The notes under the pieces were generated by a model. The model saw nothing but the letters and a program-made list of their open reading frames with translations, did no database searches and was not told where the DNA came from. The translations under genes and the position numbers were made by a program. Positions 22,560 to 42,328 of a stretch of 64,000 bases of DNA are shown here, piece after piece. The DNA is from Streptomyces lydicus (GTDB lineage: Bacteria; Actinomycetota; Actinomycetes; Streptomycetales; Streptomycetaceae), in NCBI RefSeq assembly GCF_001729485.1, contig NZ_CP017157.1, positions 7,998,001 through 8,062,000 of the forward strand, in the 5' to 3' direction. The number at the start of each line of letters is the position of its first letter. The stretch's first letter is position 1.

Positions 22560-22588
22560 CGTGGCTTCGGAAGTGGACGGACGTCTAA

Positions 22589-22808: not shown

Positions 22809-23107
22809 TCGCCTTACTCACCGATCAACACCTCCATCCCCCTCCGATGGGGTGCGCGACGAGCCTTCCATTTTGCCCGAGGAGACAGCGAGGCACTGCG
22901 TCGGCCAAGCCAGCCGTTCGAGCAGGCGTGATCACCCTGCAGAAGCCTCGGACCAGCTGTGTGCGCCCTGGTGACCGACAGGCAGAAGGCAGCAGCCGAG
23001 AGCGCCGGCTGCACACTTCCGCGGATCCGAGTCTTGACGTGAACTGGCCCGTGGAACTTACCGTCGCCGTGCATCTTGATTCGGTTGGTCACCTCGGTGA
23101 TCAACCG

Positions 23108-23263: not shown

Positions 23264-23413
23264 GCTGCCGGACCCCTCCTTCTCAGGGGCAGACCGTCTG
23301 AGAACTTAGCGAGCTGCCCGAATTCGGCTTGTCACCGCCCCCGGCCTAACTCCACACGGCCCTCGTGTCCCCATCTGAGATGCTGGGACCATCCGGCGAG
23401 AGGGGCGGCGTTC

Positions 23414-23947: not shown

Positions 23948-23948
23948 C

Positions 23949-25271
23949 TCAGGTGGGGAGCACTTCTCTGAGGCGTGCCTCGAAGGCCGTGGTGACGGGC
24001 TCTCCGCGGTACGGAGTCAGCTGTCCGTAGAACTCTCTGAGGTGGCCGGCCAGCCGTTCGGAAGCGACCGCTGAGGCGGGCTCCAGGGCGTCCGTAGCGG
24101 TGTGGCATGCCTGGTCGAGCTTGCCCTGTTGCAGTTGGGTGCGGGCCAGCCAGATTGCGTGGAAGGCGCGTCCCCGCTGGTTGGTGCCGTGCTCTCTGCG
24201 CACGGCGTCAGCAATCAGGGGTTCAGCCGCTGCTGCTTCACCGAGCTGGCCGTGCGCGATGCCGGTGTCCACGATGAGCTTGGGCTCGTCGAAGTAGGAC
24301 ACCCAGGCGGGGTCCGGGTCGTCCGCGCGGATCAGTTCGAACTGGCGGTGCGCTTCGGAGATCGCCGTGTGGGTGGCGGCCCGGCTGCCCAGTGAGGCGT
24401 GCGCAAACGCCTCTCGCATGGCCAACATCGACTGGACGCGCGGAGTCGATCCGGCGCCGCCGCGGACTGTATCTTGCGCGGCCTGCACGAAGGCCAGAGC
24501 GTCCGTGGGCTTCTCCTGGTAAGTCGCCTGCAAGCTCATGCAGGCAAGGACGTTGGCCATGAACTGCCGGTCGTCGATTTCCTTGACGAGCTTCAGGGCT
24601 TGCGTGAAATAGGCGCGGGCCTGGTTGTACTGGCGGGCGTCGAAGTGCGTCCAGCCGGTGAGGCGGGCAAGTTCCGCCGCGACCCCGTACAAGTCGTCCT
24701 TGATGGAGCGGGACCTGCTCGTGCCCAACAGGTCGACGACGTAGCGAAGTTGCCCCACCACTGCTGGCCTGAGGGCCTCGCCCCCGTGCTGGTCGTCGCG
24801 ACGCCAATAGTCCTCGATCGATGCCCGCAGCGCTTGCAGGGTGGAGGGGCTCGGATCGGTCGGCGAGGTGAGGGCGAGGATGTTGTCCAGGTCGGATCCG
24901 GGGAGATCCACGGGCTTGAGCTGCTCTGTCGCCGCGGGTGGCTGAGCCGGCTCGCGCTCGATCACGGTGAGGGCCGCAGGTGTCTCCCAGGACCGCCTGG
25001 CCAACCCGAGCATGTGACCGGGGATGTGCAACCCGTCCGCGATGCGTTCGATCACTTCCATGTGCTGCAAACGGCGTTCGCCAGCCATCACCTCCCCCAC
25101 GCGGCTCGGGGTGAGGTCGCACAGGCGGGCAATCATCGACGGGTAAATACCGGCGTGCTTTTTCACCAGCCGGAACACCCGGCTGAAGTCCCGGACTCGG
25201 CAGGCATCGATCATCTCAGGATCAGTGAGCAGCCGACCGGGAAGCTCTCGCGGCTGGGGCGGCTTCGGCAT
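23949..25271 (-). CDS. HTH-TPR transcriptional regulator
   Basis: 440 residues. The N-terminal XRE-like HTH covers about residues 25-85 (FSRVFRLVKKHAGIYPSMIARLCD, LTPSRVGEVMAGERRL). From about residue 150 to the end, repeated helical pairs (ARAYFTQALKLVKEIDDRQFMANVLACMS; AHASLGSRAATHTAISEAHRQFE) form a TPR-type superhelix, as in peptide-sensing or SARP-like actinobacterial regulators. It is divergent from a coupled four-gene operon. A perfect palindrome in the shared gap is the best candidate for its binding site. Confidence 0.88.
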   Translation of the reverse strand: MPKPPQPRELPGRLLTDPEMIDACRVRDFSRVFRLVKKHAGIYPSMIARLCDLTPSRVGEVMAGERRLQHMEVIERIADGLHIPGHMLGLARRSWETPAALTVIEREPAQPPAATEQLKPVDLPGSDLDNILALTSPTDPSPSTLQALRASIEDYWRRDDQHGGEALRPAVVGQLRYVVDLLGTSRSRSIKDDLYGVAAELARLTGWTHFDARQYNQARAYFTQALKLVKEIDDRQFMANVLACMSLQATYQEKPTDALAFVQAAQDTVRGGAGSTPRVQSMLAMREAFAHASLGSRAATHTAISEAHRQFELIRADDPDPAWVSYFDEPKLIVDTGIAHGQLGEAAAAEPLIADAVRREHGTNQRGRAFHAIWLARTQLQQGKLDQACHTATDALEPASAVASERLAGHLREFYGQLTPYRGEPVTTAFEARLREVLPT

Positions 25272-26957: not shown

Positions 26958-27570
26958 TCGCGTCGCCGGAGATGCCGGCGCAACAACTGAGACCGGACCG
27001 CCCCCTGAGCCTGGCAGCACGCGGGCGGTCCGGTCGGGGAGTTCATGATCAGAACCCCGGTGCCGATGGTACTGGGGCTGTTGTCGTGCTCACTGCGGCC
27101 GGCCCTCACGAGCGGATGACGAGAGGAAGTTGTGGACCTTGCGGAACAGGCGGCACGGGCGGACAGCAGGACAAGGTGCGCTCCTGGGCCTCAGCCACAG
27201 ACAGTCAGCCACGAAGCGGCCGCGCTGTGACGAGCACCCGCCATGTGTGCACCCGCGCCCCATCCGGTCTGTACCACGCTGCTCTGTACTGCCGTGGGGC
27301 GCAGACATGGTGCCGCCGCGGAATCGGCTGTCTGGCGCTGCTGGTCGCGTGCGCCTGGTGGAGAGGTATGGCAGATCGCGGCCGGAGCGTCGGCCTGGTG
27401 GTGCTGCTTCAGGCTGGGCGGGTTGCTGCCTGGTCTGGCTGGCCTGGCTTCGGGCCTGCGCGCTGAGCGGTGGGGGGCCGCCGGGGAGCGGTGGCGGAGA
27501 CAAGGAGCGGCGGCGGCCCCCGTCCGCCAGCGCGCGGCCCGCGTAGTCGGCCGCCTGGAAGGGGCACGGG
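26958..27570. other. Degraded gap between operon and integrase remnant
   Basis: Open frames here overlap on both strands and none has a convincing start or family match. The stretch is probably eroded sequence of the older element, including the lost N-terminal part of its integrase. Confidence 0.5.
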
Positions 27571-27908
27571 CACGGCCTGGTCTTCACCACGAAGAACGGG
27601 ACGCCCATCGAACCGCGGAACCTGAATCGGTCCTTCGAGGCACTGTGCGCTCGTGCCGAGGTCCGGCGGGTCCGCTTTCATGACCTGCGTCATACGTGTG
27701 CGTCACTGCTCCACGAACAGGGCGCGACGCCCGCATGATCATGGAAGTCCTGGGCCAAAGCTCGATCCGCGTGACCATGGACATCTACACCTTCGTACGG
27801 CTCGACTCCCAGCGCTCCGCCTTCGACCGCGTCGGGGACGCACTGAGGGGTGACGGCAGGCGGCCGGACGATGACGACGGCACCGTCGGCGTCCCGGTGA
27901 CCGCCTGA
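27571..27908 (+). pseudogene. Tyrosine integrase, C-terminal remnant with frameshift
   Basis: Residues from HGLVFTTKNGTPIEPRNLNR through VRFHDLRHTCASLLHEQG, then after a shift near 27736 MIMEVLGQSSIRVTMDIYTF. The HxLRH box is intact, but the LGH histidine reads Gln and the nucleophile Tyr lies in DIYTF. N-terminal and first-Arg regions are missing. It differs clearly from the intact integrase of the AICE, so it belongs to a separate, older insertion. Confidence 0.85.
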
Positions 27909-27968: not shown

Positions 27969-28003
27969 CCAGAGGCCCCGTTCGAATCGAACGGGGCCTC
28001 TGG
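27969..28003. terminator. Strong bidirectional hairpin
   Basis: A perfect 17-bp stem with a single central base (CCAGAGGCCCCGTTCGA and complement). It holds the place between integrase remnant and attachment site that the hairpin at 42246 holds for the AICE, so it probably once ended both the older integrase and the tRNA transcript. Confidence 0.75.
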
Positions 28004-28008
28004 CCTGC

Positions 28009-28052
28009 TGTGCGCTCGGCAGGATTCGAACCTGCAACCTTCTGATCCGTAG
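28009..28052. repeat. attL: 44-bp copy of tRNA-Arg 3' end
   Basis: Identical over 44 bp (TGTGCGCTCGGC ... TGATCCGTAG) to 42285-42328, where the sequence is the 3' portion of an intact tRNA-Arg gene including T-arm and anticodon stem. Here the rest of the tRNA is absent. This is the left attachment site of the AICE and also the right one of the older element. Confidence 0.92.
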
Positions 28053-28506
28053 GCGGGTGCCGCGGAGGGCGGCGCACTTATGGCCCTCCATCCGTGCTTC
28101 GCTGCCCTGGTACATCAGAGCATCCTCGTCTAGTGGTGTGCGCTGCCGTTGATGTCAGCTGTTGATGTCAGCCCAAGACGTTGCCGGGCCGCCGAAAGCT
28201 TCGACCGGAGGCGACCACAGTTGTCAGCCCCCGGGCAGCGCTCGTCAGCGTCGGCACATGGGTCTACCGCATGCCGCGGTGCCCGCGCAGTCCATGGCCG
28301 CCGAACCAATGGCGACCACCCCAGGGGCTACGGCTCACCGATGGGTCGCCTTCGCCCTATCAGCCTGATAAACATCCCGGCAAAGCAGGAGCTCACTAGC
28401 GGAACTTCGATCCGCAAACTTCGTTAAATAAAAGCACACCTATAGCCATGCACGATTGACAAGTCTATACTTATCGCAGCGCAACCTAAAACCCGAGGAG
28501 CCGAGC
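28053..28506. other. Left-end gap of the AICE
   Basis: It holds the arm-type repeats and then about 330 bp with no supported gene. Composition drops sharply after about 28370. The AT-rich stretch with TTGACA (28456) and TATACT (28466) must contain the cargo promoter, but these two hexamers are too close together to pair as -35/-10. Confidence 0.5.
28148..28170. repeat. Paired arm-type repeats inside attL
   Basis: GTTGATGTCA occurs at 28148-28157 and 28161-28170 (period 13). A matching pair with identical spacing lies inside attR at 42224. They probably bind the integrase's N-terminal domain. Confidence 0.6.
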
Positions 28507-29322
28507 GTGCCTGAACCACAATTCAAACGTGAAGCAGACATGCTTACACCAATCGCGAGTCAAGCAACTCAGTTAATGCCTGGAAGCAGCGAGACCCTGT
28601 TCGAAGTACAAACAATCGCAGGCATTCCAGACATCGTCTTTATTGACTTCGACACGACAACCCTGGAGCACAGAAAGGAAACTTCGAAATCATTCATTGT
28701 CGACTTCTCCGACATGTGTGTTCTGCAGGCCCTTGATGCATCCAATCACGAAGTGATCACTTCGGCCGAATTGGCATCTCGACTTCCATTGAGCGCCAAA
28801 TACATCTCGTCAACCGTACTGCCGCGACTTACGGAGTACGGCTACGTACGCAAACACTCTCGCGGGAAATGGATTTCCGAGTCAAAATTCAAAAGCCTAG
28901 CCAAACGAATCTGCACCATTGAGGTGAAAATCCGCGACTGGCGGAGCGGATACAGTCAGACTTTGCGCCATCGAGCCTCGACAGATTTGGCGTGGCTGGT
29001 GCTCGATTCCACTTACTCGACACCCGCCACAGAACACCGAGAGTGGTTCAAACGGGCAGGAATTGGATTGGCTACGCTAGACAACGAAAGGGGAGTCAAG
29101 CGCGTCGTCTCTCCAAAGTTGAAAAGAGGACACAAAAGAAACGTTTACCGCGAATTGCTGGCTGAAAGAGCCGCCCACCTCTACGCAACAGGTCAGACAA
29201 GCGGCTCTATCGGTCTTGTCTTTGGTGTAGATCTAACGACTACTACAGGGCCTGATCCCAGGAGGCCAAATGTCGGGGAACGTCATTCGTCCCCAAAGGC
29301 AGTTCACTTGACCACCTCCTAG
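28507..29322 (+). CDS. Predicted PD-(D/E)XK nuclease with inserted winged helix
   Basis: 271 residues from GTG, chosen because GAGGAG lies seven bases upstream. Residues 33-47 (E33, then GIPDIVFID with D42) and 137-145 (TIEVKIRDW, E139-x-K141) give the E...PD...ExK pattern of the PD-(D/E)XK nuclease core. The downstream ARG/LEU-rich helix (SGYSQTLRHRASTDLAWLVLDS) and the strand IGLATLD fit the end of that fold. Residues about 67-125 between the motifs read as a winged helix (SAELASRLPLSAKYISSTVL, RLTEYGYVRK). The C-terminus is basic. Low GC and TTA codons mark it as foreign. Its 3' end overlaps the convergent barrel gene by 80 bp. A DNA-targeting role is inferred. Confidence 0.6.
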   Translation: MPEPQFKREADMLTPIASQATQLMPGSSETLFEVQTIAGIPDIVFIDFDTTTLEHRKETSKSFIVDFSDMCVLQALDASNHEVITSAELASRLPLSAKYISSTVLPRLTEYGYVRKHSRGKWISESKFKSLAKRICTIEVKIRDWRSGYSQTLRHRASTDLAWLVLDSTYSTPATEHREWFKRAGIGLATLDNERGVKRVVSPKLKRGHKRNVYRELLAERAAHLYATGQTSGSIGLVFGVDLTTTTGPDPRRPNVGERHSSPKAVHLTTS

Positions 29323-30664
29323 CATTCGCCACAATGCGCCGCACTGCTCCGTGACGTCCACCGCGGGCTGAATCCTCATGCACCCTGGCTGTCAGTTCGC
29401 CCATGCAGTAGAGGTGATGAAGCGCAGCAAGTGCGTGAGACCAAGTTGGGTTTCTGAACAACTGCGGGCAGTACGTGCAGGTGCAGTCAACATATCCTTG
29501 GGACGACCGAACGACGTCATGAGCGCTGCTGTCTACTGTGTGCAGCATCTGCTTCTCGAAATACCTCTGGGCCTGCTGCTGGCCCTTCCGTGCGCGGCGA
29601 AAGGCGTACTCCGCAAAGGATTGCTCGGAGCCACTGAAGCCCAGTCCATACCCAGCAGCACCATGCGCCAGCGCAAACCAGCCGGTGATACCAGTCTGAG
29701 GTAGCAGCAGCGGCCGGCCCTCATCTGCGCACAGATTAGAGAGTCGCTTGATGCCCATGAGAAGATCCCCGTCTTCGGTGGGCGCGAATGCCTTGGCCTG
29801 CGCCCATTGAATTCGGATGTACAGGACATCGAACTGGTCCTGATCGAGGATCTGATCTAGCAACCGATTTCGCAAGGCTTCGCTGGAGAGCCACCGCGAC
29901 GGCAGAGTCAGGTTTAGCGCTAGACGTTCGCCTCTCTCAGTCAGTGCCAATGCCTCATCTGCCTCCTGAAAGGCACTGTCGAGGGAGGCCTGCGGGGTGT
30001 CTGGGTCGAGTGCCCTACCAGGGGTGAGTAGCAGATTTGCCCCGATGGCGCGCTGAGCATCCAGGACCTGCAACACCCAGTCGGTGTCTTCAGTAGTGGA
30101 GAGGTAGGGGGCATATCCCCATGCACGCTTTCCGATAGGGCTTGGAGACAGACGTAGAACTTTTTCGTCGAGTCGATAGCACTGCGGGTCGGCAATGCGT
30201 AGAGCTGCAACGGACGCCTGCCGGAGAAAACCACCAAGCTTCTCCCCCTTAGCAGCGGGGAGGTTAGCTACTGCTCCGATAGCAATGGAACGACCCTTTT
30301 TGTGATGCAGTTCTCCCATTACCCATGGGAGGAGTTCTGCGTTACGCCCTCCTCGGTGCACAAGGTAGATGGGGCGATCACCAGTCAGGGAACTATCTCG
30401 ACTCACGACCGTTGGGGCAGAAGCTGTTTCTGTCACCGTAGAACCGGGCGGCAGCGCTGATAAAATACTGCCGGCTTCCGTACCGGACACGGCCAAGTAC
30501 CCTTTGCCGTCGTCAATCGGTACGTATTCGTCCTCAGCGTCTAAGTACGCGTTAGCCGCCTCGTCTTCAAGTTGCTGCTCATCGACTACGTCTGTGAGGC
30601 TATCCTCGTCCTCCAGCCAATTCAGGAGGTCTTCCGGCATAGGGTCAGGCTCTTCGTGTGGCAT
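29243..30664 (-). CDS. Barrel-like cargo protein with TGT-like Cys/His cluster, unknown
   Basis: 473 residues. An acidic N-terminus (~50 residues, DEQQLEDEAANAYLDAEDEY) precedes about 300 residues with repeating strand-helix units (SIAIGAVANL, LALNLTLPS, DVLYIRIQWA, PLLLPQTGITGWFALAHGAA, YGLGFSGS) suggestive of a TIM-like barrel. Near residue 397, VDCTCTYCPQLF and then ALHHLYCMGELTARVH resemble the CxCxxC...H zinc site of tRNA-guanine transglycosylases and DpdA-like enzymes. The resemblance is by eye only, and no catalytic Asp is assigned. It starts 5 bp after the kinase stop with GGTGAGG overlapping that stop, so the two are one operon. Confidence 0.5.
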   Translation of the reverse strand: MPHEEPDPMPEDLLNWLEDEDSLTDVVDEQQLEDEAANAYLDAEDEYVPIDDGKGYLAVSGTEAGSILSALPPGSTVTETASAPTVVSRDSSLTGDRPIYLVHRGGRNAELLPWVMGELHHKKGRSIAIGAVANLPAAKGEKLGGFLRQASVAALRIADPQCYRLDEKVLRLSPSPIGKRAWGYAPYLSTTEDTDWVLQVLDAQRAIGANLLLTPGRALDPDTPQASLDSAFQEADEALALTERGERLALNLTLPSRWLSSEALRNRLLDQILDQDQFDVLYIRIQWAQAKAFAPTEDGDLLMGIKRLSNLCADEGRPLLLPQTGITGWFALAHGAAGYGLGFSGSEQSFAEYAFRRARKGQQQAQRYFEKQMLHTVDSSAHDVVRSSQGYVDCTCTYCPQLFRNPTWSHALAALHHLYCMGELTARVHEDSARGGRHGAVRRIVANARRWSSELPLGTNDVPRHLASWDQAL

Positions 30665-30669
30665 CTACC

Positions 30670-31497
30670 TCACCTTTGCTTCCTGAGTCGCAAAAGGTTG
30701 CTGGCGCTACTGCCTCGTTCGTGCTCAACAACCGAGGTGAGCCTATCGAGGACTTGCTTCACTTCCTCTGGGCAGTCAGGGGGCAAATCCTCGGGCCCAC
30801 CCATCAACTCGCTAAACGCTTCGTCAACACTGTACTTTTTGCCTGACGAATAGAAAGGATGTCTTCCAGAGATGAGCTGACGCACCGAAACTCCCACCGC
30901 CCACAAGTCGGCCGCTTTGCGGGCACGCCGCCCCTCCAACTGCTCGGGCGCCATGTAAGGAGGGGTGCCGATATGCCCGGGGTAGACAGTGATCGTGGTT
31001 GCATCCATCTGCTTAGACAGCCCAAGGTCGAGCAATACAGGTTGGCACCAATCTCCGTGTCGCAATGAAATATTGGCAGGTTTGATATCTCGATGAATGG
31101 TAGCCGCCTTATGCAGCGCCTGAACGCCTAGCAGCAAGCCTTGCAAAAACCCTGGAGTAAGCTCTACAGGTAGAAGATCGCCTCGGTTTAGGTATCCTTC
31201 CGCATCGCCGCCTGCAATATACTCAAAGCGCAATGCGGGGCGCTTCTGCCCACCAAGGCGAAATTCGTCCAGACCTCGAAAATCTACAACGTAAGGCGAA
31301 TTTACGCGAGTGAGCCCATCCACTTCGCGTTCCAGTCGCGTTCTCGGATAGTCATCGACGCAGATGATTTTTACTGCCTCGGCGCCAGCCTTCCAGGTAT
31401 CGCCATAGGCTCCCGACCCGAGAAAAGTAACGGGCACGCCAAGGCTGTCAGCGACCTCGTCGGCACTGAAACGCGGGGAAGCAATGGGTTGAGTCAA
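30670..31497 (-). CDS. Ser/Thr protein kinase
   Basis: 275 residues from a TTG start with a weak ribosome-binding site. The glycine loop is FLGSGAYGDTW (27-32), the ATP lysine is K43 in AVKII, and the catalytic loop is HRDIKPAN (D137, N142). DLG (157-159) replaces the usual DFG, and the activation segment ends GTPPYMAPEQLEG. There is no membrane helix, PASTA or other sensor domain, so it is a compact soluble Hanks-type kinase. It is co-transcribed with the barrel protein, which may be its substrate or partner. Lower GC than the backbone. Confidence 0.88.
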   Translation of the reverse strand: MTQPIASPRFSADEVADSLGVPVTFLGSGAYGDTWKAGAEAVKIICVDDYPRTRLEREVDGLTRVNSPYVVDFRGLDEFRLGGQKRPALRFEYIAGGDAEGYLNRGDLLPVELTPGFLQGLLLGVQALHKAATIHRDIKPANISLRHGDWCQPVLLDLGLSKQMDATTITVYPGHIGTPPYMAPEQLEGRRARKAADLWAVGVSVRQLISGRHPFYSSGKKYSVDEAFSELMGGPEDLPPDCPEEVKQVLDRLTSVVEHERGSSASNLLRLRKQR

Positions 31498-31755
31498 GGA
31501 CGTCTCGCTTCACGACTTGCCTGCTGGGCACGGTGTGGGGGCTTACGACGTGGGGTGTCGCAATCATCCAGTACTCATGTCGTCCTGTAAGGCAGTTCGG
31601 CAAAACCGGCGAAAGTTACCCGAAAACCCGAGCGGCAAACCTTCACATAAGGGGCATATGCGCCCGTCAAATCATGCGGCGCCCCATAAGAGGGCTGCAC
31701 TTGTGGGAGATGCACGTCTGGGGCTCGCACCGTGGCCCTACTGGGTGGTCAAAAA

Positions 31756-32178
31756 CTACGCACCCAGAACGCGATGACCATCGTGAGTGCGAACGTGCGG
31801 CCCGCTAGCATTGAGCGCGTCGAGCACTCGCACGGCGTACGCCTCCGCCATGTGGCGCTCGACCTCTTCGCGGGTGAACCAGCGCACGTCCACGGACTCG
31901 TCTGACGTGTGCTCCTCGCCACCGACCGGCCGGCAGCGGAAGACCAGGGCGACGACGCCGCGCTTCATGTTCTTGTAGACGCCGGTCAGGCGCTCCGGCT
32001 CGACCTTGATGCCGGTCTCTTCCAGGACCTCTCGGCAGGCGCCTTCCTCGGGGCGTTCGTCCAGTTCGAGGACGCCGCCCGGGGCTTCCCAGGCGCCGTT
32101 GTCAGCACGCTTGATCACGAGAACGCGGCCGTCCTCGCGGACCACCACTCCGGCCACCGAAACCGAGTGAAGCGACAT
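31756..32178 (-). CDS. pif: NUDIX hydrolase, Pif-like
   Basis: 140 residues from the ATG at MSLHSVSVAGVVV; GGGAGG lies about seven bases upstream, whereas the alternative Met ten codons earlier lacks one. The NUDIX box is GVLELDERPEEGACREVLEETGI. In pSAM2 the pif gene next to korSA encodes a NUDIX protein that blocks redundant transfer between element-bearing cells. The same position beside a GntR repressor gene here supports that role by context. Its start lies 59 bp from the divergent repressor start, with an operator between. Confidence 0.8.
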   Translation of the reverse strand: MSLHSVSVAGVVVREDGRVLVIKRADNGAWEAPGGVLELDERPEEGACREVLEETGIKVEPERLTGVYKNMKRGVVALVFRCRPVGGEEHTSDESVDVRWFTREEVERHMAEAYAVRVLDALNASGPHVRTHDGHRVLGA

Positions 32179-32202
32179 TGACCGGACCTCCCGGTTAGCG
32201 TT

Positions 32203-32217
32203 ACTCATGTACAGGAG
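32203..32217. promoter_or_regulatory. Repressor operator in the pif/GntR gap
   Basis: ACTCATGTACAGGAG, exactly repeated at 33069 in front of the transfer operon. It lies between the divergent NUDIX and GntR starts, so it could autoregulate the repressor and control pif. Confidence 0.65.
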
Positions 32218-32236
32218 CATAGGAGGACTGAAGGAC

Positions 32237-33016
32237 ATGGGCACAGCAGCCTCTAGAGACTCAGGTCAGCCACGGTACCTACAGATCGCGGATGACCTGG
32301 CTCAGCAGATCAGGTCCGGAGTCCTCCCGCCTGGAGCCAAGGTGCCCAGTGAGTCGGAACTCATGGCCCGCTACTCCGTGTCTCAGGGCACGGCACGCAA
32401 GGCCGTGGCGGAGCTCCGGCCTACCGGCTTGATCGACACCCACCATGGCAAGGGCTCGTTCGTGAAGAGCCAGCCGCCGGTACGTCGTAAGTCGTCCGAC
32501 CGCTTCCGCCGGTCCCACCGCAAGGCCGGCAAGGCCGCGTACCTCGCGGAATCCGAGCAGGCCGGGAAGACCGCGGGCGTGACGGTGCTGTACGTCGGCC
32601 CGACCGAGGCGCCTGAGGAGATCGCGGAGCGCCTGGGCGTTCCGGCCGGCACGAAGGTGCTGGCGCGTCGGCGTCTGTATTTCAGCAATGGGACGCCTAC
32701 GGAAGAGGCGACGTCGTACCTTCCGTGGGACATCGCGGAGGAGATCCCCGAGCTGCTCGCGGAAAACCCTGGGGGCGGCGGCATCTACGCGCGCCTGGAG
32801 GAGAACGGGCACATGCTGAAGGAGTTCACGGAGACCGTCCGCGCCCGGCTCGCCACGAAGCAGGAGACCGGCGCCCTAAGCCTGAGTCCCGGCTCGCCCG
32901 TGATTCACCTGGTCCGGAACGCGGAGAGCGAGGACGGCCGGGTGGTCGAGGTCTGCGACACCGTCATGGCCGCTGACCAGTTCGTTCTCGACTACCGCAT
33001 CCCTGCGGGAGACTGA
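32237..33016 (+). CDS. GntR-family repressor, KorSA-like
   Basis: 259 residues from the ATG at MGTAASRDSGQPRYLQIA, with AGGAGG about ten bases upstream. The winged HTH (YLQIADDLAQQIRSGVLPPGAKVPSESELMARYSVSQGT...) spans about 12-80. The C-terminal UTRA-like domain runs from about 105 (GVPAGTKVLARRRLYFSNGTP; HLVRNAESEDGRVVEVCDTVM). The element position matches KorSA of pSAM2, which represses transfer and replication genes. Identical 15-bp motifs upstream of itself and of the transfer leader are its likely operators. Confidence 0.88.
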   Translation: MGTAASRDSGQPRYLQIADDLAQQIRSGVLPPGAKVPSESELMARYSVSQGTARKAVAELRPTGLIDTHHGKGSFVKSQPPVRRKSSDRFRRSHRKAGKAAYLAESEQAGKTAGVTVLYVGPTEAPEEIAERLGVPAGTKVLARRRLYFSNGTPTEEATSYLPWDIAEEIPELLAENPGGGGIYARLEENGHMLKEFTETVRARLATKQETGALSLSPGSPVIHLVRNAESEDGRVVEVCDTVMAADQFVLDYRIPAGD

Positions 33017-33503: not shown

Positions 33504-33776
33504 ATGAAGTACATCGTTCCTGTTCAGGCGGTCGTTACCGCCACCGAGTACGACCGCGGACCGACGGCCGCGGAGCTGGATGCCATCGACGTCGAGATGC
33601 CGCTCATCTCCGCCGAGGTGGAGCTGCTCGACGTACAGATCATGGTCCTGGACCGGGTGCCGTCCGAGCTGGACGAGCGGCGCATTCGTCGGGCTCGGCG
33701 CAAGGTGCTGGCCGCGCGGCGAGAGCTGGCGAATCTCCCCACCACCACGGCGTTCGTGCCGGAGGTGGGGGCATGA
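33504..33776 (+). CDS. DUF6284-like small protein
   Basis: 90 residues, MKYIVPVQAVVTATEYDRGPTA..., then helical EMPLISAEVELLDVQIMVLD and RRIRRARRKVLAARRELANL. AAAGGAG lies about ten bases upstream. This is a recurrent small gene at the start of Streptomyces plasmid/AICE transfer operons, matching what I know as DUF6284. The basic helical C-terminus could bind nucleic acid or a partner. The stop overlaps the next start by 4 bp. Confidence 0.7.
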   Translation: MKYIVPVQAVVTATEYDRGPTAAELDAIDVEMPLISAEVELLDVQIMVLDRVPSELDERRIRRARRKVLAARRELANLPTTTAFVPEVGA

Positions 33777-34228
33777 GCTACCAGGACACCGCGCTGACCG
33801 CAGCGCACACGGAGGTCAAGGCCGAGCTGGCTCGTACGGACACCAAGGCCAGTCTGCTGCTGGCGTTTACCGGTGCGATGCTGGCCGGCGCCTGGACGGT
33901 GGCCAGCAGTGTTCACCTGCCGCCGGCCGCCGTCGCCTTCGGGGCCGCCGGGGTGGCGGTGCTGCTGACCGCGGCCACGTACCTGCTGTGGACGGTCCGT
34001 CCGAACCTCGGTGGTGCCCGACCGCAGGGCTTTCCGAAGTGGGCCACCCTCACCCCGGACGAGATCCGCGACGCCCTGGCCGAGGACGACCGGCCGGCGC
34101 ACATCGCCACCCTTTCCCGCATCGCGGTGGTGAAGTTCGGACGCTTGCGCCGTGCCATCGACCTCACGTGCCTGGCCGGCGGCCTGCTGGTCGTGGCGGC
34201 CCTCACCGCGTGGGGCGGTGGCGCATGA
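33773..34228 (+). CDS. Pycsar-type transmembrane effector-like protein
   Basis: 151 residues. TALTAAHTEVKAELARTDTKASLLLAFTGAMLAG is the helix-turn into the first membrane segment that defines the Pycsar effector TM family. A second segment (AAVAFGAAGVAVLLTAATYLLW) and a third near the C-terminus (LTCLAGGLLVVAALTAWG) follow. In Pycsar immunity such proteins disrupt the membrane on sensing cCMP/cUMP, but no pyrimidine cyclase is present in this window. Location between DUF6284-like and Spd-like genes suggests a role in transfer or entry exclusion instead. Confidence 0.75.
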   Translation: MSYQDTALTAAHTEVKAELARTDTKASLLLAFTGAMLAGAWTVASSVHLPPAAVAFGAAGVAVLLTAATYLLWTVRPNLGGARPQGFPKWATLTPDEIRDALAEDDRPAHIATLSRIAVVKFGRLRRAIDLTCLAGGLLVVAALTAWGGGA

Positions 34229-36130: not shown

Positions 36131-38299
36131 ATGACCGAACCCGCTGCGGGGGAAACGCAGATGGGAACCATCCACCACCTCGACGCACACCGCCCCACCC
36201 CGCCCGTCACCCTGGTCAAAGCCGCCACCGAAGCCACCACAGACACGGCACCGGCCGCAGACGACGAGACAACCTGCGAAGCCGTGGACCGTGCGGACAA
36301 TCCGCTGGCCGACTGGCTGACCGTGCCGGACGCCCCCGTGCTTCCCGCCTGGGCACGCTCCGCGGAGTCGCTCAAGGCCAACGTCGTCGCGCTGGGGCGC
36401 CTTACGTGGTGGCACTCCCGCTACCACGGCCTGCGCGTCCCGAAGTACCTGATGAAAACAGTGCTGTTGGCGTGCCGTGGCTTCTTCCGGGCTGCCGTCG
36501 GCATCTGGCCGACGCTCTCCGCCCGGGAGCACTCCGCGACCGTGCGGGCCCTCCGGGCACAGGTGAAGCTGCGCCCGGAGGACGTAGAGCTGGCCGCCCG
36601 CCACCAGGCCGCGCATGCCGCCCGTACCCAGACCCGCCGCTGGCGCTTCGGCATCGCGGCCGTCGGCGTCGCGGCAGCAGCAACCGGCATCGCTCTTGCC
36701 GACCCTGTCTTGCAGGCCGGCATGAGCGCGGCCGTGGTCGCCCCACTCGCCTACCTGGGGCGGGGCAAGGAGACCCGCCTGCTCGACCAGGCCGCTCCGC
36801 CGCTGAAGGTGGACATGTCCGCCCAGCAGCTCAACGACGCGCTCCGCGCTGCCGGGCTGCTCAAGACCGGCAAAGGAGACGAGGACGGCCCCAAGGTCAC
36901 CTGTGTCATGGGTCCGGTCCGTGACGGCCGCGGCTGGGCGGTGGTCTTCGACCTTCCGCGCGGCGGTGGCAAGACTGCCTCGGACGTGCTGGCCAAGCGC
37001 GAGGTGATCGCCCAGGAACTGGGCGTCGACGAGATCCAGGTCATCATGTCCCGCGTGCGGGCCGCCAAGGGTGGCAACGCCGGGCGCGTGAGCATGTGGG
37101 TCGCCGACGATGACCCCTACCTGGGCCCCCCGAACCCCTCGCCACTGGAGAAGGCCGAGCGGTTCTCCATCTGGGACGCGGTGCCGTTCGGGCAGGACGC
37201 CCGCGGCACCCGCATCTCCGTCCCCGTCATGTGGCAGTCGATGTTCTTCGGCGGCCTGCCCCGTCGCGGCAAGACGTTCTCCCAACGCCTGCTGACCGCG
37301 GCCGGGCTCCTGGACCCGTACGTGCGGCACTACGTCGCCGACGGCAAGGGCGGCGCCGACTGGATGCCCATGAAGGCCGTCGCCCACCGTCTCGTCATGG
37401 GCGCCGAGGACGACGCGATCGAGGCGCTGAAAGCCATGCTCGCCGAGCTACTGGCAGAGATGGAGCGCCGCTTCGCGCTGCTGCGGGACCTGCCCACCTC
37501 GCTGTGCCCGGAAGGCAAGCTCACCCCGGACATCGTGGCGAAGTACAACCTGCCGGTCATCTTCGTGACCATCGACGAGCTGCAGGAGTACTTCACGGCC
37601 ATGGAGAAGGACGACCGCGAGCAGGTCATCAACGACCTGTGCCGTATCGCCCGGCGCGGCCCCGCGGCCGGCTTCATCTCCAACTTCGCCAGCCAGCGCC
37701 CCGACGCCGACTCCGTACCGACGAAGCTGCGCGAGATCATCACCATCCGCTACTCGACACAGGTCGTCGACCGGGCGAGCAGCGACATGGTGCTGGGCAA
37801 GGGCAAGGCCGCCCAAGGCGCCGACGCCTCCGTTCTCTCCGAGGAACACAAGGGCGTGGGCGTGCTGGTCACCGGCCCCGCTTCGTACGTCACCGTGCGC
37901 GCCGACTACCTGGACGGGCCCGCCTTCGCCGCGCTGTGCCGCAAGGGCAGGACGCTCCGGGAAGCGGCCGGTCAGCTCACCGGCGACGCGGCCGGGGACG
38001 TCACGGCCGCCGCGGACGCCCAGGGCGTCAGCGTCCCGCCGATCATCTCCGACGTCCTGGAGGTCATGCGGCACTCCCCGCGCATGTACACCACCGACCT
38101 GCTGGCCGGCCTGGTCAACCTCGACGAGGACGTCTACGGCGACTTCAACGCCGAACAGCTCGCCTCCGACCTGGAGGCGGCCGGCGTCAAGCGCACCAGC
38201 AAGCAGGTCAAGATCAATGGCAAGGCTCTCGCCGGATACCAGCGCCGCGACATCGAGGACGCCGTACCCGCAGAGATCCTGCTCGCCGCCGGGAGGTAG
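36131..38299 (+). CDS. FtsK/SpoIIIE-type DNA translocase, TraSA-like
   Basis: 722 residues. A membrane segment lies at about 160-200 (FGIAAVGVAAAATGIALADP, AAVVAPLAYLG). The ATPase domain carries the Walker A GGLPRRGKTFSQ near residue 375 and a Walker B-like VIFVTIDELQEYF near 480. A C-terminal winged-helix-type region (from about 640: ISDVLEVMRHSPRMYTTDLLA) probably reads the DNA recognition repeats. TraB/TraSA proteins move double-stranded DNA between mycelia as hexamers, without a relaxase, and none is found here. A candidate recognition locus follows directly. Confidence 0.92.
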   Translation: MTEPAAGETQMGTIHHLDAHRPTPPVTLVKAATEATTDTAPAADDETTCEAVDRADNPLADWLTVPDAPVLPAWARSAESLKANVVALGRLTWWHSRYHGLRVPKYLMKTVLLACRGFFRAAVGIWPTLSAREHSATVRALRAQVKLRPEDVELAARHQAAHAARTQTRRWRFGIAAVGVAAAATGIALADPVLQAGMSAAVVAPLAYLGRGKETRLLDQAAPPLKVDMSAQQLNDALRAAGLLKTGKGDEDGPKVTCVMGPVRDGRGWAVVFDLPRGGGKTASDVLAKREVIAQELGVDEIQVIMSRVRAAKGGNAGRVSMWVADDDPYLGPPNPSPLEKAERFSIWDAVPFGQDARGTRISVPVMWQSMFFGGLPRRGKTFSQRLLTAAGLLDPYVRHYVADGKGGADWMPMKAVAHRLVMGAEDDAIEALKAMLAELLAEMERRFALLRDLPTSLCPEGKLTPDIVAKYNLPVIFVTIDELQEYFTAMEKDDREQVINDLCRIARRGPAAGFISNFASQRPDADSVPTKLREIITIRYSTQVVDRASSDMVLGKGKAAQGADASVLSEEHKGVGVLVTGPASYVTVRADYLDGPAFAALCRKGRTLREAAGQLTGDAAGDVTAAADAQGVSVPPIISDVLEVMRHSPRMYTTDLLAGLVNLDEDVYGDFNAEQLASDLEAAGVKRTSKQVKINGKALAGYQRRDIEDAVPAEILLAAGR

Positions 38300-38508: not shown

Positions 38509-38545
38509 GGGCGGCCCCTCTCACGCCAATGAAATCGGGCCGCCC
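38509..38545. terminator. Hairpin before the replication genes
   Basis: GGGCGGCCC and GGGCCGCCC form a perfect 9-bp stem with a 19-nt loop that ends 38 bp before the DUF2742 start. It may insulate replication genes from transfer genes. Confidence 0.4.
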
Positions 38546-38583
38546 TGGTCTCCCATCTCCAGCACGAGACGGAGGTCTCCAGC

Positions 38584-39060
38584 ATGCCCCAACCGCCCCC
38601 GCCCCGACGAGCCTGCCCGCCCGAGTGCCCGGGCGCCGTACACGTCCTGTGGACGCAGGCGAAAGCCGCCTACCGGACCGGCGCCTTCCCGCTCTACGCC
38701 GGCCCCGAATGGTGCGGCCTCCGACCGGACGACCCGCAGCGGCTCGCGTCCGTTCTCGCGGCCGCCGAATCGTGGCGCCGGCACCAGGCCGAACGGGACC
38801 GGCTCGACGTCCTCATGGACGCCGACCCCGACGCCTGGTGGCGCGCGGTCACCGCCAGCGCCAGCAACGAGGCCCACCGCACCTTGGTCCGCCTCCGGCT
38901 GTCGCGCGTGCCGACCGCCGCCGAGATGACTGCGCGCCGCCACACCCACCCTGCGACGCAGTTGCACCCCTCCCCCGGCTGGCCGGCCATCGCGATCCCC
39001 GGCCGCCCCGGCCACTACCTGACGTGGCACGGCGACGAGCACCAGGAGGAGGCCGCATGA
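38584..39060 (+). CDS. DUF2742-like protein
   Basis: 158 residues. It starts with a Pro/Cys-rich segment (RRACPPECPGAVHVLW), has helices in the middle (LASVLAAAESWRRHQAERDR) and ends WPAIAIPGRPGHYLTWHG, a signature I associate with DUF2742 proteins of actinobacterial elements. It overlaps the helicase gene by 4 bp, so a role in replication initiation or its control is likely. No catalytic motif is seen. Confidence 0.65.
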   Translation: MPQPPPPRRACPPECPGAVHVLWTQAKAAYRTGAFPLYAGPEWCGLRPDDPQRLASVLAAAESWRRHQAERDRLDVLMDADPDAWWRAVTASASNEAHRTLVRLRLSRVPTAAEMTARRHTHPATQLHPSPGWPAIAIPGRPGHYLTWHGDEHQEEAA

Positions 39061-40670
39061 GCGGGACCACCGACGCGGAGCAGATCCCGCCGCCCTCCAA
39101 CCCCATGGCCGTCGCCCGACACCTCGCCCCGGACTGGCAAGGCACGGACGGCCAGTTGATCCGCCGCCGCTGGCGAGGCTCCTGGATGCGCTGGGCGGGT
39201 AGCTCCTGGCGGGAGCTGGACGAACAGCAGGTGCGGGCATCGCTCTACCAGCGGCTGGAGCACACCACCTACGAAGCCGGTACGGACAAGGACGGAGAGC
39301 CGGAGATCCGCCCGTGGGCGCCGACCAAGCAGAAGATCGGCAACCTGCTGGACGCGCTCACCTCCATCACCCTCCTGCCGTCCGACGTCGACGCTCCCAC
39401 CTGGATCGGGGACGACACCACGACCGCGGACGCCCACGGCCCGATCGTGGCGTGCGAGAACGGACTCCTGCGGGTCAGCGACCGCGAACTCCTGCCCCTC
39501 ACACCGGACTTCTTCAACCTGGTCTCCGTCCCCTTCGCCTACGACCCGCAGGCCACCGCGCCCAACTGGGAACGGTTCCTGCACCAGGTCTGGCCGGACG
39601 ACCAGGCGTCCATCGACGCCCTCCAGGAGTGGTTCGGCTACGTGCTCTCCGGCCGCACCGACCAGCAGAAGATCCTCCTCATCGTCGGCCCGACCCGCTC
39701 CGGCAAAGGAACCATCGCCCGCGTCATGGCCGAGCTGGTGGGCCGCGGCAACCTGGCCGGCCCCACCCTCGCCGGCCTGGGCAGCAACTTCGGCCTCTCC
39801 ACGCTGCTGGGCAAGCCGCTGGCCGTCATCTCCGACGCCCGGCTCTCCGGCCGCGACGGCGGCCAGGTCGTCGAACGCCTGCTGACCATCTCCGGCGAAG
39901 ACACCATCGACATCGACCGTAAGTTCCGCGACCCATGGACGGGAAAGCTGCCCACCCGCCTGATGATCCTGTCCAACGAGCTGCCGAACTTCGGCGACTC
40001 CTCCGGCGTCATCGCCCGCCGCTTCATCGCGCTGAACATGACCGTCTCCTGGCTCGGCAAGGAAGACACCGATCTCACGGGCAAGCTCGCCGCCGAGATG
40101 CCCGGCATCCTCAACTGGGCCCTTGATGGACTGGCCCGCCTGGAGGAGAAGGGCCGCATCACCGAACCGCCCTCTTCCCGGGAGGCGGTCACCACCATGC
40201 AGGACACCGCCTCGCCCACCTCGGCTTTCGTCCGCGAGTGCTGCCAGACCGGCCCGGCGGTAGAAGTGACCGTCGACGCCCTGTGGGCCGTCTGGAAGGA
40301 CTGGGCCGAGGACAACGGCGTACGCAGCGTCGGCACGAAGCAGATGTTCGGTCGCAACCTCCAGTCCGTCGTCCCGCAGCTGCGGCGCACCCGCCCCCGC
40401 GACGACACCGGCAAGCAGGTGCCGACCTACACCGGCATCACGCTGATCAACTCGCCCCACAGTCACCCGGGCCGCGACTCAACGCGACTCACCACCACCG
40501 AACCGGCCTTGAGTCGCGATGAGACGCGACCCAACGCATTGCGGACTCAACACAACGGCGACCAGCCCGCCAGCATCTCCGGCCCCAACGTCGGCCCGTG
40601 CGTCGGCTGCCAGACCCCCACCCTCCGATACGGCCCGTACGGAAACCCGCACTGCCGCAACTGCCGCTGA
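39057..40670 (+). CDS. P4-type phage/plasmid replicative helicase
   Basis: 537 residues. A D5_N-like region (about 50-190: PWAPTKQKIGNLLDALTSI, ACENGLLRVSDRELLPLTPDFF) is followed by a superfamily-3 helicase with Walker A VGPTRSGKGTIARVM (about 220), Walker B LAVISDARLSGRDGG and sensor motif RLMILSNELPNFGD. The C-terminus carries CVGCQTPTLRYGPYGNPHCRNC, a four-Cys zinc knuckle. The primase-polymerase domain that is often fused to or encoded beside such helicases is absent. It probably unwinds the element origin for excision-coupled replication. Confidence 0.88.
   Translation: MSGTTDAEQIPPPSNPMAVARHLAPDWQGTDGQLIRRRWRGSWMRWAGSSWRELDEQQVRASLYQRLEHTTYEAGTDKDGEPEIRPWAPTKQKIGNLLDALTSITLLPSDVDAPTWIGDDTTTADAHGPIVACENGLLRVSDRELLPLTPDFFNLVSVPFAYDPQATAPNWERFLHQVWPDDQASIDALQEWFGYVLSGRTDQQKILLIVGPTRSGKGTIARVMAELVGRGNLAGPTLAGLGSNFGLSTLLGKPLAVISDARLSGRDGGQVVERLLTISGEDTIDIDRKFRDPWTGKLPTRLMILSNELPNFGDSSGVIARRFIALNMTVSWLGKEDTDLTGKLAAEMPGILNWALDGLARLEEKGRITEPPSSREAVTTMQDTASPTSAFVRECCQTGPAVEVTVDALWAVWKDWAEDNGVRSVGTKQMFGRNLQSVVPQLRRTRPRDDTGKQVPTYTGITLINSPHSHPGRDSTRLTTTEPALSRDETRPNALRTQHNGDQPASISGPNVGPCVGCQTPTLRYGPYGNPHCRNCR
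40473..40518. repeat. Inverted repeats inside the helicase 3' end, possible origin
   Basis: CGCGACTCAA (40473) and its exact complement (40509-40518) flank further ACGCGACTC and GAGACGCGAC units in about 80 bp. Dense repeats within or next to a rep gene are common in element origins. The encoded residues here are low-complexity, which fits a DNA-level function. Confidence 0.4.
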
Positions 40671-40725
40671 ACCGCGACCGGGAGGGGCCGCCATATCGGC
40701 CCCTCCCCTCTCCCAGGAGGCAACC

Positions 40726-40923
40726 GTGAGCATCGTCCTGCCCGAGATGCCCACCGCCGTCACCGTGCCGGAGGTGATGGCGGCCCTGCGGCTCAGCCGC
40801 AGCAAGGTCTACGACCTGATCCGCTCCGGCACCCTGCCGAGCTTCACCGAGGGCCGCGCCCGACGCATCCCCCTCGACGCACTCCGCACCTACATCCACA
40901 ACAAGCTTGAGGAGGCTGCCTGA
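40726..40923 (+). CDS. xis: Excisionase, MerR-like HTH (Xis)
   Basis: 65 residues from GTG with CAGGAGG eight bases upstream. VTVPEVMAALRLSRSKVYDLIRSGTLPSFTEGRARRIPLDALRTYI is the helix-turn-helix/wing of excisionases (HTH_17). Its stop overlaps the integrase start, the standard xis-int coupling. It should bend attachment-site DNA to favour excision. Confidence 0.92.
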   Translation: MSIVLPEMPTAVTVPEVMAALRLSRSKVYDLIRSGTLPSFTEGRARRIPLDALRTYIHNKLEEAA

Positions 40924-42206
40924 TGGCCAAGAGGCGCGCCAACGGAGAAGGCACCATCACGAAGCGCACCGACGGCCGCTACCACGCAGCCGCGTACGTC
41001 TACCGCCCCGACGGCACCCGAGTGCGGAAGTTCGTCTACGGCAAGACCCGTGAGGAGGTGGGCAACAAACTCATCGAACTCCAGGAGAAGACCCGGCAGG
41101 GAATCCCAGCCGCCACCTCCGCCATGCCGTTCGGCGACTTCCTCACCTACTGGCTGGCTGTCATCGCGCCCGCCCGCCTCAAGCCCGCGACGCTCAACAG
41201 CTACGAGGGCCTGTCCCGGCTCTACATCAAACCGGCCCTCGGCAAGAAGAAGCTCAACCGCCTCTCCCCCACCGACATCCGCCTATTCCTCGCGGAGTTC
41301 AAAAGCGGGTGCCTGTGCTGCCTCCGGGGCGTCGACGCAGCACGTGCCAAGGAAGACCGGACGTGCTGCGCCGTGAACAAGTGCTGCAAGCGCCGGCCGT
41401 CGGCCCGCACCGTCCAGTACGTCCACGCCGTGCTCCGGTCCGCGCTCCAGCAGGCCGTCCGGGAAGAGCTCATCGCACGCAACGTCGCACGCATCGTGGA
41501 GACACCCACCATCGAACGCCAGGAGGTACGGCCGTTGGACGCCGCAGAGGCCAGAATCCTGCTCAAGACCGCCCGCAAACACCGGCTCTACGCCTTGTGG
41601 CTGCTGCTCATCTCCACCGGCCTGCGGCGCGGGGAAGCCCTCGGGCTCACCTGGTCGGACATCGACCTGGGCACCGGCCAACTCCGGGTCCGTCGCAACC
41701 TCCAGCGCATCAAGCGCGAACTGCTCTTCGGCACCCCGAAAACGGCACGCTCGCTCCGGACGGTGTCCCTCCCCCGCAAGTGCGTGGACGCCCTCATCGC
41801 CCACCAGGCGCAGCAGGAGCAGGAACGGAAGGTGGCCGGCGCCAAATGGCAGCCGGTCCCCGGGCACCCGAGCGGCCTGGTCTTCACCACCGCCACCGGC
41901 CGGGCCACGGACCCTCGCAGCCTCAACCGCATGCTCACCATCCTGTGCCGGGATGCCAAGGTGCGGCGCGTACGAGTGCACGACCTCCGACACACCTGCG
42001 CCTCCCTGCTGCTGGCCCAGGGCGTCGATCCCCGCACGATCATGGAGACGCTCGGCCACAGCACCATCACGATGACGCTCGATACCTACGCGCACGTGAT
42101 GCAGACCACCCTCAAGGCGGCGGCCGACCGGATGGACGACGCCCTGGGGGTTGACGAGCCGACCGAGGACGAGGAGGGCGGTCCGGGGTGCGCGCCGGCC
42201 GCGTGA
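40923..42206 (+). CDS. int: Tyrosine site-specific integrase
   Basis: 427 residues. An arm-binding N-terminus (GTITKRTDGRYHAAAYVYRP) and a core-binding SAM-like domain (about 60-190) precede the catalytic domain. Catalytic residues are visible: Arg in STGLRRGEALGLTW, HDLRHTCASLL, the His in TLGHSTITMTL and the nucleophile Tyr in DTYAHVM. A Cys-rich insertion (CLCCLRG, CCAVNKCCKRRPS) sits between core and catalytic parts, as in several Streptomyces integrases. It lies beside arm repeats and attR and should recombine the 44-bp tRNA-Arg sites. Confidence 0.95.
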   Translation: MAKRRANGEGTITKRTDGRYHAAAYVYRPDGTRVRKFVYGKTREEVGNKLIELQEKTRQGIPAATSAMPFGDFLTYWLAVIAPARLKPATLNSYEGLSRLYIKPALGKKKLNRLSPTDIRLFLAEFKSGCLCCLRGVDAARAKEDRTCCAVNKCCKRRPSARTVQYVHAVLRSALQQAVREELIARNVARIVETPTIERQEVRPLDAAEARILLKTARKHRLYALWLLLISTGLRRGEALGLTWSDIDLGTGQLRVRRNLQRIKRELLFGTPKTARSLRTVSLPRKCVDALIAHQAQQEQERKVAGAKWQPVPGHPSGLVFTTATGRATDPRSLNRMLTILCRDAKVRRVRVHDLRHTCASLLLAQGVDPRTIMETLGHSTITMTLDTYAHVMQTTLKAAADRMDDALGVDEPTEDEEGGPGCAPAA

Positions 42207-42284: not shown

Positions 42285-42328
42285 TGTGCGCTCGGCAGGA
42301 TTCGAACCTGCAACCTTCTGATCCGTAG
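42285..42328. repeat. attR: 44-bp repeat within tRNA-Arg
   Basis: Identical to 28009-28052. It covers the tRNA 3' end through the anticodon loop, so the gene is rebuilt when the element inserts. Confidence 0.92.

What the first reader, a model, noticed from the sequence alone, without database searches (positions are those of the whole stretch)
28507..31497. Kinase, barrel protein and HTH-nuclease as a candidate novel system on an AICE
Seen: three low-GC genes at the attL end of the AICE, between the arm-type repeats and the pif/repressor pair, the usual cargo slot. Two (Ser/Thr kinase and barrel-like protein with a CxCxxC...H cluster) form an operon; the third (E...PD...ExK nuclease motifs around a winged helix) converges on it. 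Known: compact kinases and PD-(D/E)XK nucleases recur in mobile-element defence loci, and TGT-like enzymes (DpdA) in DNA-modification islands. Inference: phosphorylation could gate a nucleotide-modifying or nucleic-acid-cleaving response against phage or competing elements. I do not recognise this gene set as a named system.
Basis: partly seen in the sequence, partly recalled or inferred. Interest (0 to 1): 0.82.

Follow-up and report, generated by a model that had tools for sequence, protein, structure and literature searches.

The report
Kinase, TGT-like barrel, nuclease module
Three genes on a Streptomyces-type mobile element (a protein kinase, a relative of a tRNA-editing enzyme, and a DNA- or RNA-cutting enzyme) turn out to travel together in distant bacteria and an archaeon, which points to an undescribed, possibly defensive, three-part system.

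The parts
28009..28052 (.). attL: 44-bp perfect direct repeat of the tRNA-Arg(ACG) 3' part
   Evidence: identical to 42285-42328
28507..29322 (+). PD-(D/E)XK nuclease with inserted winged helix, 271 aa
28705..28878 (+). winged-helix insertion (residues 67-124) between catalytic Asp and ExK
   Evidence: model secondary structure; Zalpha/MarR/ArsR-type matches; not seen in the shorter Polaromonas homologue
29243..29322 (.). 80-bp convergent overlap of nuclease and barrel 3' ends
   Evidence: overlap of 35-101 bp in 17 of 18 other order-A loci, 4 bp in the 18th
29243..30664 (-). TGT-fold barrel protein, 473 aa, no Pfam family
29417..29485 (-). TGT-like zinc ligands C394, C396, C399, H416
   Evidence: 20 of 20 barrels (19 order-A loci plus L016)
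30670..31497 (-). Hanks-type Ser/Thr kinase, 275 aa (TTG start as listed)
   Evidence: Pkinase 1.4e-30; K43, HRD137, D157 in 19 of 19
31756..32244 (-). AICE NUDIX (pif-like) gene; edge of the cargo slot
   Evidence: PF00293 2e-20; homology with the closest AICE begins at 31772
32207..33016 (+). AICE GntR/UTRA repressor
36131..38299 (+). AICE FtsK/SpoIIIE-like transfer protein
   Evidence: PF01580 1.3e-07
38529..40670 (+). AICE D5-type replication protein
40519..40923 (+). AICE excisionase-like HTH_17 (listed ORF; true start may be further in)
40923..42206 (+). AICE tyrosine integrase
   Evidence: PF00589 5.3e-25
42285..42328 (.). attR: 44-bp repeat inside tRNA-Arg(ACG) 42286-42359 (-)

Best explanation
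It is a conserved three-component module carried as cargo by mobile elements: a Hanks-type Ser/Thr kinase, a TGT-fold protein, and a PD-(D/E)XK nuclease that usually carries a winged helix. Shown here: the three genes stay together across distant hosts, the window's barrel and nuclease folds are predicted with good confidence, and the kinase and nuclease catalytic residues are conserved in every copy aligned. Inferred: the nuclease is the effector that cuts DNA or RNA. The TGT-fold protein recognises a nucleic-acid feature, acting as a nucleophile-less or altered relative of tRNA-guanine transglycosylase (comparable to the non-catalytic eukaryotic partner QTRT2, recalled) rather than inserting 7-deazaguanine. 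The kinase, most likely triggered by infection, an incoming element or DNA damage, phosphorylates one or both partners and so switches the nuclease on or off. The net effect would be defence of the host cell and resident element against phages or competing elements.
For: Loci collected by barrel homology only: kinase adjacent in 23 of 24, nuclease in 23 of 24. Among the 19 non-window loci compared (18 order-A plus L016), barrel, kinase and nuclease families reach 19, 18 and 18 loci; the next families reach 4. Pairwise distances of the three proteins correlate at r 0.971, 0.946 and 0.973 over 18 order-A loci, 0 of 2000 permutations as high. The window's kinase is 50-78% identical to 14 of 17 order-A partner kinases but at most 35% to the 29 other kinase matches of its own genome. 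Gene order differs in 4 loci yet the set persists. Folds. Rare and patchy: 2 of 391 genomes of the order and 3 of 396 of the phylum, the own genome included in both. Mobile context: att site, integrase beside L021 (Pfam) and L088 (by eye), TrwC relaxase beside L011, five plasmids. Defence genes near some copies: Wadjet JetA/B/C directly beside L013, a PDC-S39 gene one ORF away in L006, a type III REase-like gene 2-5 kb away in L021, SAVED and SoFic genes around L092.
Against: No activity has been shown. Neighbours were picked by me with no random control: 5 of 10 proteins, from 3 of 6 loci, had a PADLOC hit and the rest none. The kinase's PADLOC matches (mad6 2e-38, PD-T4-6 2.1e-35) are generic; the curated MADS6 model scores 92 against a cut-off of 460. 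The kinases of the three most divergent order-A loci (L021, L022, L028) are only 31-40% identical to the window's, no better or little better than its own genome's other kinases, so there the kinase lineage is not distinguished. TGT active-site mapping is by strand order, not by superposition. Correlated distances also arise from shared descent of hosts. The winged helix could make the nuclease-like protein a regulator.
Confidence: 0.45

Rival explanations
1. Dpd-like restriction-modification: the TGT-fold protein inserts a 7-deazaguanine base into element or host DNA as a self mark, the nuclease cuts unmarked (or marked) DNA, and the kinase regulates.
For: TGT fold with complete zinc ligands in order-A members; an Asp at the end of the third barrel strand, the position of a catalytic TGT Asp by strand order, in 18 of 20 and in the three order-B barrels aligned; the window's own genome has a strong QueC hit, 7.8e-51; formally 9 of 18 host genomes have a hit over the QueC family cut-off.
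Against: No acidic residue at the expected nucleophile position in 20 of 20 barrels and in the three order-B ones. Apart from the own genome, the QueC hits are at most 27.1 bits, all but one over about 60-70 of 210 positions, in open frames of 440-878 aa, which I read as other proteins. No PF01702 TGT in the own genome or 10 relatives. No PF01702 or PADLOC match of the barrel. The three order-B barrels aligned lack CxCxxC.
Confidence: 0.15
2. RNA-targeting stress or abortive-infection module: the TGT-fold protein binds tRNA and delivers the nuclease to it, and the kinase releases the toxin on infection or stress.
For: All 50 listed structural neighbours of the barrel are TGTs, which bind tRNA. 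A kinase-gated precedent with a different kinase and toxin fold, VapK-VapS-VapC, is described in PMC13373217 (passages seen).
Against: Two of the best nuclease-domain matches are DNA enzymes, PaqCI and NucS. No toxicity data.
Confidence: 0.2
3. Regulatory cassette of the mobile element: the wHTH protein is a transcription factor with a degenerate nuclease domain, controlling the kinase-barrel operon or transfer.
For: Winged helix resembles MarR/ArsR; some records call it MarR or BadM/Rrf2 regulator; convergent, overlapping gene.
Against: E33, D42, E139 and K141 are invariant wherever covered (18 of 18 or 19 of 19), and the Polaromonas homologue keeps the nuclease core without a winged helix, so the nuclease part is what is conserved. 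The set sits on plasmids and on elements with different neighbouring genes.
Confidence: 0.15
4. No joint function: passive hitch-hiking of three genes locked together by overlapping ends.
For: Overlap conserved in 19 of 19 order-A loci, with the same phase in 17 (window; others).
Against: The set persists in a same-strand order in four loci from three phyla.
Confidence: 0.03

Closest known systems
tRNA-guanine transglycosylase (TGT, PF01702)
   Same: Predicted fold over about 300 residues including the zinc subdomain; CxCxxC and His zinc ligands in order-A barrels
   Different: 10-16% identity in the structural alignments, PF01702 listed for none of 52 members, no Asp where TGT has its nucleophile (by strand order), an extra N-terminal region of about 85 residues
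Dpd 7-deazaguanine DNA-modification/restriction system and TGT-bearing BRC systems
   Same: A TGT-fold protein in a locus with a nuclease or effector; BRC described in PMC12839542 (passages seen)
   Different: The conserved set here is three genes, with a protein kinase and without the DpdB/DpdC, HerA, PglZ or DUF6079 partners named in that paper; full-length QueC seen in 1 of 18 hosts searched
PD-(D/E)XK nucleases PaqCI, NucS/EndoMS, SPO1766 (MmcB-like, recalled)
   Same: Core fold and E...D...ExK residues
   Different: Winged helix inserted between the catalytic Asp and ExK; no Pfam nuclease family reached
Kinase-bearing defence systems: PglW/BREX, MADS MAD6, PD-T4-6
   Same: Hanks-type kinase domain, best PADLOC matches
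   Different: Small stand-alone 275-aa kinase; NCBIfam MADS6 cut-off not met (92 of 460 bits); a different conserved gene set
CapK-CapS / VapK-VapS-VapC (PMC13373217, passages seen)
   Same: A kinase controlling a wHTH or toxin partner encoded beside it
   Different: GHKL-type kinase and STAS-domain substrate there; Hanks kinase and TGT-fold protein here

Membership tests
TGT family PF01702 | TGT fold with zinc subdomain | tested here: met
TGT family PF01702 | Match to the Pfam model | tested here: not met
   0 of 52 barrel members list PF01702 at E up to 0.5; profile-profile with 27 TGTs reaches only the zinc region, E 0.012
TGT family PF01702 | Zinc ligands CxCxxC...H | tested here: met
   20 of 20 barrels of order A plus L016; the three order-B barrels aligned (L088, L091, L093) lack CxCxxC
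TGT family PF01702 | Nucleophilic Asp at the end of barrel strand 8 (recalled) | tested here: inconclusive
   G, S or T at the expected position in 20 of 20; G, A or S in the three order-B barrels, L093 having an Asp two residues earlier; mapped by strand order only
Dpd system | preQ0 supply (QueC) in the host | tested here: inconclusive
   PF06508 in 18 host genomes: 10 have a match at E <= 0.001 and 9 one over the cut-off, but only the own genome's covers the family strongly (174.5 bits); the others are at most 27.1 bits and, but for one (positions 1-177), short
Dpd system | DpdA-family protein with DpdB and DpdC partners | tested here: inconclusive
   PADLOC gives no hit for the barrels scanned; no search was made with DpdB or DpdC models
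PD-(D/E)XK nuclease | Core fold | tested here: met
PD-(D/E)XK nuclease | Catalytic D and ExK | tested here: met
   D42 18 of 18 covered, E139 and K141 19 of 19; motifs also in L088, L091, L093
Hanks-type Ser/Thr kinase | Pkinase domain with Lys, HRD and DFG-type motifs | tested here: met
   1.4e-30; K43, HRD137, D157 19 of 19
MADS (MAD6) | Curated NCBIfam model NF047741 | tested here: not met
   92 bits against cut-off 460
AICE | int, xis, replication, FtsK-like transfer, pif/GntR, att in tRNA | tested here: met
Anti-phage defence system | Protection in a phage assay | not testable with these tools
   needs a bench experiment

The most novel reading that the evidence does not exclude
A new immune system spanning bacteria and archaea in which a TGT fold has been turned from a base-exchanging enzyme into a sensor of foreign nucleic acid (an altered base, tRNA or DNA end), and a dedicated Ser/Thr kinase uses that signal to license a PD-(D/E)XK nuclease.
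Probability: 0.3. Interest if true: 0.9.

Novelty: categorically new. Interest (0 to 1): 0.76.

Why it matters
The set is a compact, testable three-gene unit with defined catalytic residues, found from Streptomyces to a haloarchaeon; its barrel and nuclease are not named by Pfam, NCBIfam or PADLOC for the copies scanned. If it is defensive, it would add a nuclease system controlled by protein phosphorylation and a non-canonical role for the TGT fold. Even if it is not, it explains a recurrent block of 'hypothetical protein' cargo on actinobacterial mobile elements. The parts have known folds; the combination is what I call new. That label rests on PADLOC 2023 and the paper searches named here; bioRxiv and most subscription papers were not searchable.

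Tried and rejected
Dpd-type modification was my leading reading; the QueC result and the strand-8 residues lowered it. By the formal tally QueC is over the family cut-off in 9 of 18 host genomes; I discount all but the own genome's because they are at most 27.1 bits, mostly 60-70 of 210 positions, in long unrelated-looking frames. That is inference, and completeness is given for only four of these genomes. Profile-profile alignment of the barrel with 27 TGTs gave only the zinc region (E 0.012, probability 3.5%); the global alignments were meaningless. An ungapped profile scan supported the zinc region and its His (with one competing register) but not my strand 7-8 pairing, so the nucleophile claim rests on strand order alone. 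Searching barrel or nuclease, alone or as profiles, against PDB sequences found nothing of note (the weak VapS hit at E 0.098 looks like chance). No relatives were found in 50,697 phage records with four barrel queries or in four IMG/VR scans, three with barrels and one with the nuclease. BFVD gave only weak, mostly unnamed viral proteins. A profile with distant barrels listed 5 proteins, 3 of them new. A kinase tree was not made; identities were compared instead. The nuclease profile also hit one further genome weakly, E 2.2e-4, over model positions 51-132, mainly the winged-helix part; it was searched in the order only, not the phylum. In some searches the alignment puts T and S at D159 in L021 and L022, although both have a nearby Asp that may be the true equivalent; the Pro after it is invariant in 12 of 12. 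Paper searches: (listings seen; passages of PMC12839542, and PMC13373217; PMC10853773 searched for four terms, none found); no title or abstract listed described this gene set.

Rows dropped or merged: L018, L023 and L025 are genome G181, judged the same contig as L006 by its length and counted once; L001, L017, L024, L061, L086 and L094 overlap the window itself; L019, L021, L085 and L090 are one place in G414, L020, L022 and L084 one in G728, L087-L089 one in G531. L015 was left out of the distance correlation because its nuclease is cut by the contig end; L016 has no kinase; the barrel of L009 is frame-broken and only its downstream frame was used; L092's kinase and barrel are broken up, were matched piecewise, and were not used. 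Further proteins (134 and 21 listed or counted) were not examined for gene context beyond shared contig lengths and adjacent locus tags.
Full report
WHAT IS THERE. The window is part of an 8.2-Mb chromosome. A 44-bp perfect direct repeat (28009-28052 and 42285-42328), the 3' part of tRNA-Arg(ACG), bounds a 14.3-kb AICE with integrase, excisionase-like, D5-type replication, FtsK-like, NUDIX and GntR genes. Just inside attL lie the three genes of the finding: nuclease 28507-29322 (+), barrel 29243-30664 (-) and kinase 30670-31497 (-). The kinase and barrel reading frames are 5 bp apart. The nuclease converges and overlaps the barrel by 80 bp. The four 1-kb bins from 28001 to 32000 are 56-59% GC; 39 of 64 bins of the window are at 70% or more. 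A search with the NUDIX/pif protein matched 145 of 246 genomes of the genus; in the three closest relatives that I fetched, similarity to the window's left part begins only at the pif gene (31772, 31813 and 31775) and none has the triad, so the triad sits in a variable slot.

THE THREE TRAVEL TOGETHER. I collected loci by barrel homology alone: 15 from genome contigs, two more actinobacterial genomes, two plasmids, one very distant actinobacterial genome, two further plasmids and one more. With the window this makes 24 distinct loci. A kinase gene adjoins the barrel in 23 of 24 and the nuclease is present in 23 of 24. L016 has neither a kinase nor a nuclease hit; its contig ends about 160 bp past the barrel, and by eye a frame there resembles the nuclease C-terminus. 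L015 is counted as having the nuclease, but its copy is cut by the contig end. Two nucleases are not in the PLSDB gene tables: L028, Arthrobacter sp. FB24 plasmid 3, and L093, Polaromonas pPNAP03. Among the 19 non-window loci compared (18 of order A, and L016) the three families reach 19, 18 and 18 loci and the next ones only 4.

TWO GENE ORDERS. Order A (kinase, barrel, convergent nuclease) holds in 19 loci. The 3' ends overlap in all 19: 80 bp in the window, 35-101 bp in 17 others and 4 bp in L028, with the same phase in 17 of 19. Order B (nuclease, kinase, barrel on one strand) holds in four: actinobacterial genome G531 (L088, beside an integrase recognised by eye), a Natribaculum breve plasmid (L091, haloarchaeon), a Bradyrhizobium sp. 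62B plasmid (L092, kinase and barrel broken up) and Polaromonas pPNAP03 (L093, nuclease without the winged helix). Because the set persists in a different arrangement, the overlap does not explain the linkage.

CO-INHERITANCE. For 18 order-A loci (L015 left out, L009's barrel by its downstream frame), pairwise protein distances correlate at 0.971 (kinase-barrel), 0.946 (kinase-nuclease) and 0.973 (barrel-nuclease); none of 2000 permutations reached these values. Common descent of hosts contributes to this. The window's kinase shares 50-78% identity with 14 of the 17 other order-A kinases compared, but at most 35% with the 29 other kinase matches in its own genome, so it is not a locally recruited kinase. 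With L021, L022 and L028 it shares only 31-40%, which does not set those kinases apart. The module is rare: 2 of 391 genomes of the order and 3 of 396 of the phylum for the barrel profile, 4 of 396 for a distant-barrel profile, the own genome included each time. The nuclease profile, searched in the order only, rang strongly in the same two of 391 genomes and weakly in one more.

IS IT A WORKING TGT? Placing strands in order, the third strand ends in ADPQCY in the window, and the order-B barrels have DPQFY or DPQLY, so an Asp that may correspond to one catalytic TGT Asp is common: 18 of 20, with T and S aligned there in L021 and L022. The eighth strand, where TGT has its nucleophile (recalled), has G, S or T at the expected position in 20 of 20 and G, A or S in the three order-B barrels aligned, L093 having an Asp two residues earlier. 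This mapping lacks a superposition and was not supported by my ungapped profile scan. The three order-B barrels also lack the CxCxxC, though the column of H416 is His in 11 of 12. For QueC, needed for preQ0, 10 of 18 host genomes have a match at E <= 0.001 and 9 one over the family cut-off, but only the window's own genome has a strong full-length one (174.5 bits); the others are at most 27.1 bits and, but for one, cover about 60-70 of 210 positions in long frames, which I read as unrelated proteins. TGT itself is missing from the window's genome and from 10 relatives, although 46 of 80 sampled genomes of the phylum match it. Canonical 7-deazaguanine insertion is therefore unlikely as the general function, but not excluded.

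WHAT IT PROBABLY DOES. Shown: a conserved triad, mostly on demonstrable mobile elements where context could be read, with intact kinase and nuclease residues. Inferred: the nuclease is the effector, the TGT-fold protein is the nucleic-acid recogniser, and the kinase is the switch. For defence speak the patchy distribution and neighbours in some loci: Wadjet JetA/B/C directly beside L013, a PDC-S39 gene one ORF away in L006, a type III REase-like gene 2-5 kb away in L021, and SAVED and SoFic genes around the Bradyrhizobium copy. Neighbours were hand-picked; hits came from 3 of 6 loci (5 of 10 proteins), and there was no random control, so this is weak support. No relatives were found in phage records or IMG/VR scans.

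KNOWN OR NEW. PADLOC 2023 names neither the barrel nor the nuclease in the copies scanned; the kinase hits many kinase models generically, and the curated MADS6 cut-off is not met. Full-text searches listed no paper whose title or abstract describes this set. The nearest published neighbours are TGT-bearing Dpd and BRC systems (PMC12839542, passages) and the kinase-regulated CapK-CapS/VapKSC (PMC13373217, passages); both differ in their partners. bioRxiv and most subscription papers were not searchable, so a name may exist.

VERDICT. Its nucleotide-modification idea is weakened, and its defence idea remains plausible but unproven.

Noticed in passing
33776-34228: ORF in the AICE core matches PycTM (Pycsar effector transmembrane domain, PF18967, 4e-15); a relative lies near the triad in L004. 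A cyclase partner was not looked for.
   Followed up: no
about 27560-27850: A C-terminal integrase fragment lies just outside attL, probably the remnant of an earlier element in the same tRNA; INT tblastn hits in L024, coordinates converted from that locus.
   Followed up: no
20001-24000: A second lower-GC stretch (0.58-0.64) left of the AICE, content not examined.
   Followed up: no
L091 9192-9884: A calcineurin-like metallophosphatase (PF12850, 3.7e-27; PDC-S10 1.9e-07) directly follows the barrel in the haloarchaeal plasmid, a possible fourth component there.
   Followed up: partly
L013 10402-15958: Wadjet jetA, jetB and jetC lie directly beside the nuclease gene in Arthrobacter gallicola.
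   Followed up: partly
L009 8001-9421: The Streptomyces fulvorobeus barrel is split by a frame break (two tblastn pieces).
   Followed up: no
G000:C1:5185344-5185973 (L029): The window's own genome has a strong QueC, unlike the 17 other carriers searched; what it serves was not examined.
   Followed up: no
L007 10606-14412: A TPR/NB-ARC protein of 1268 aa follows the nuclease gene in Streptacidiphilus sp. ASG 303; no PADLOC hit.
   Followed up: partly
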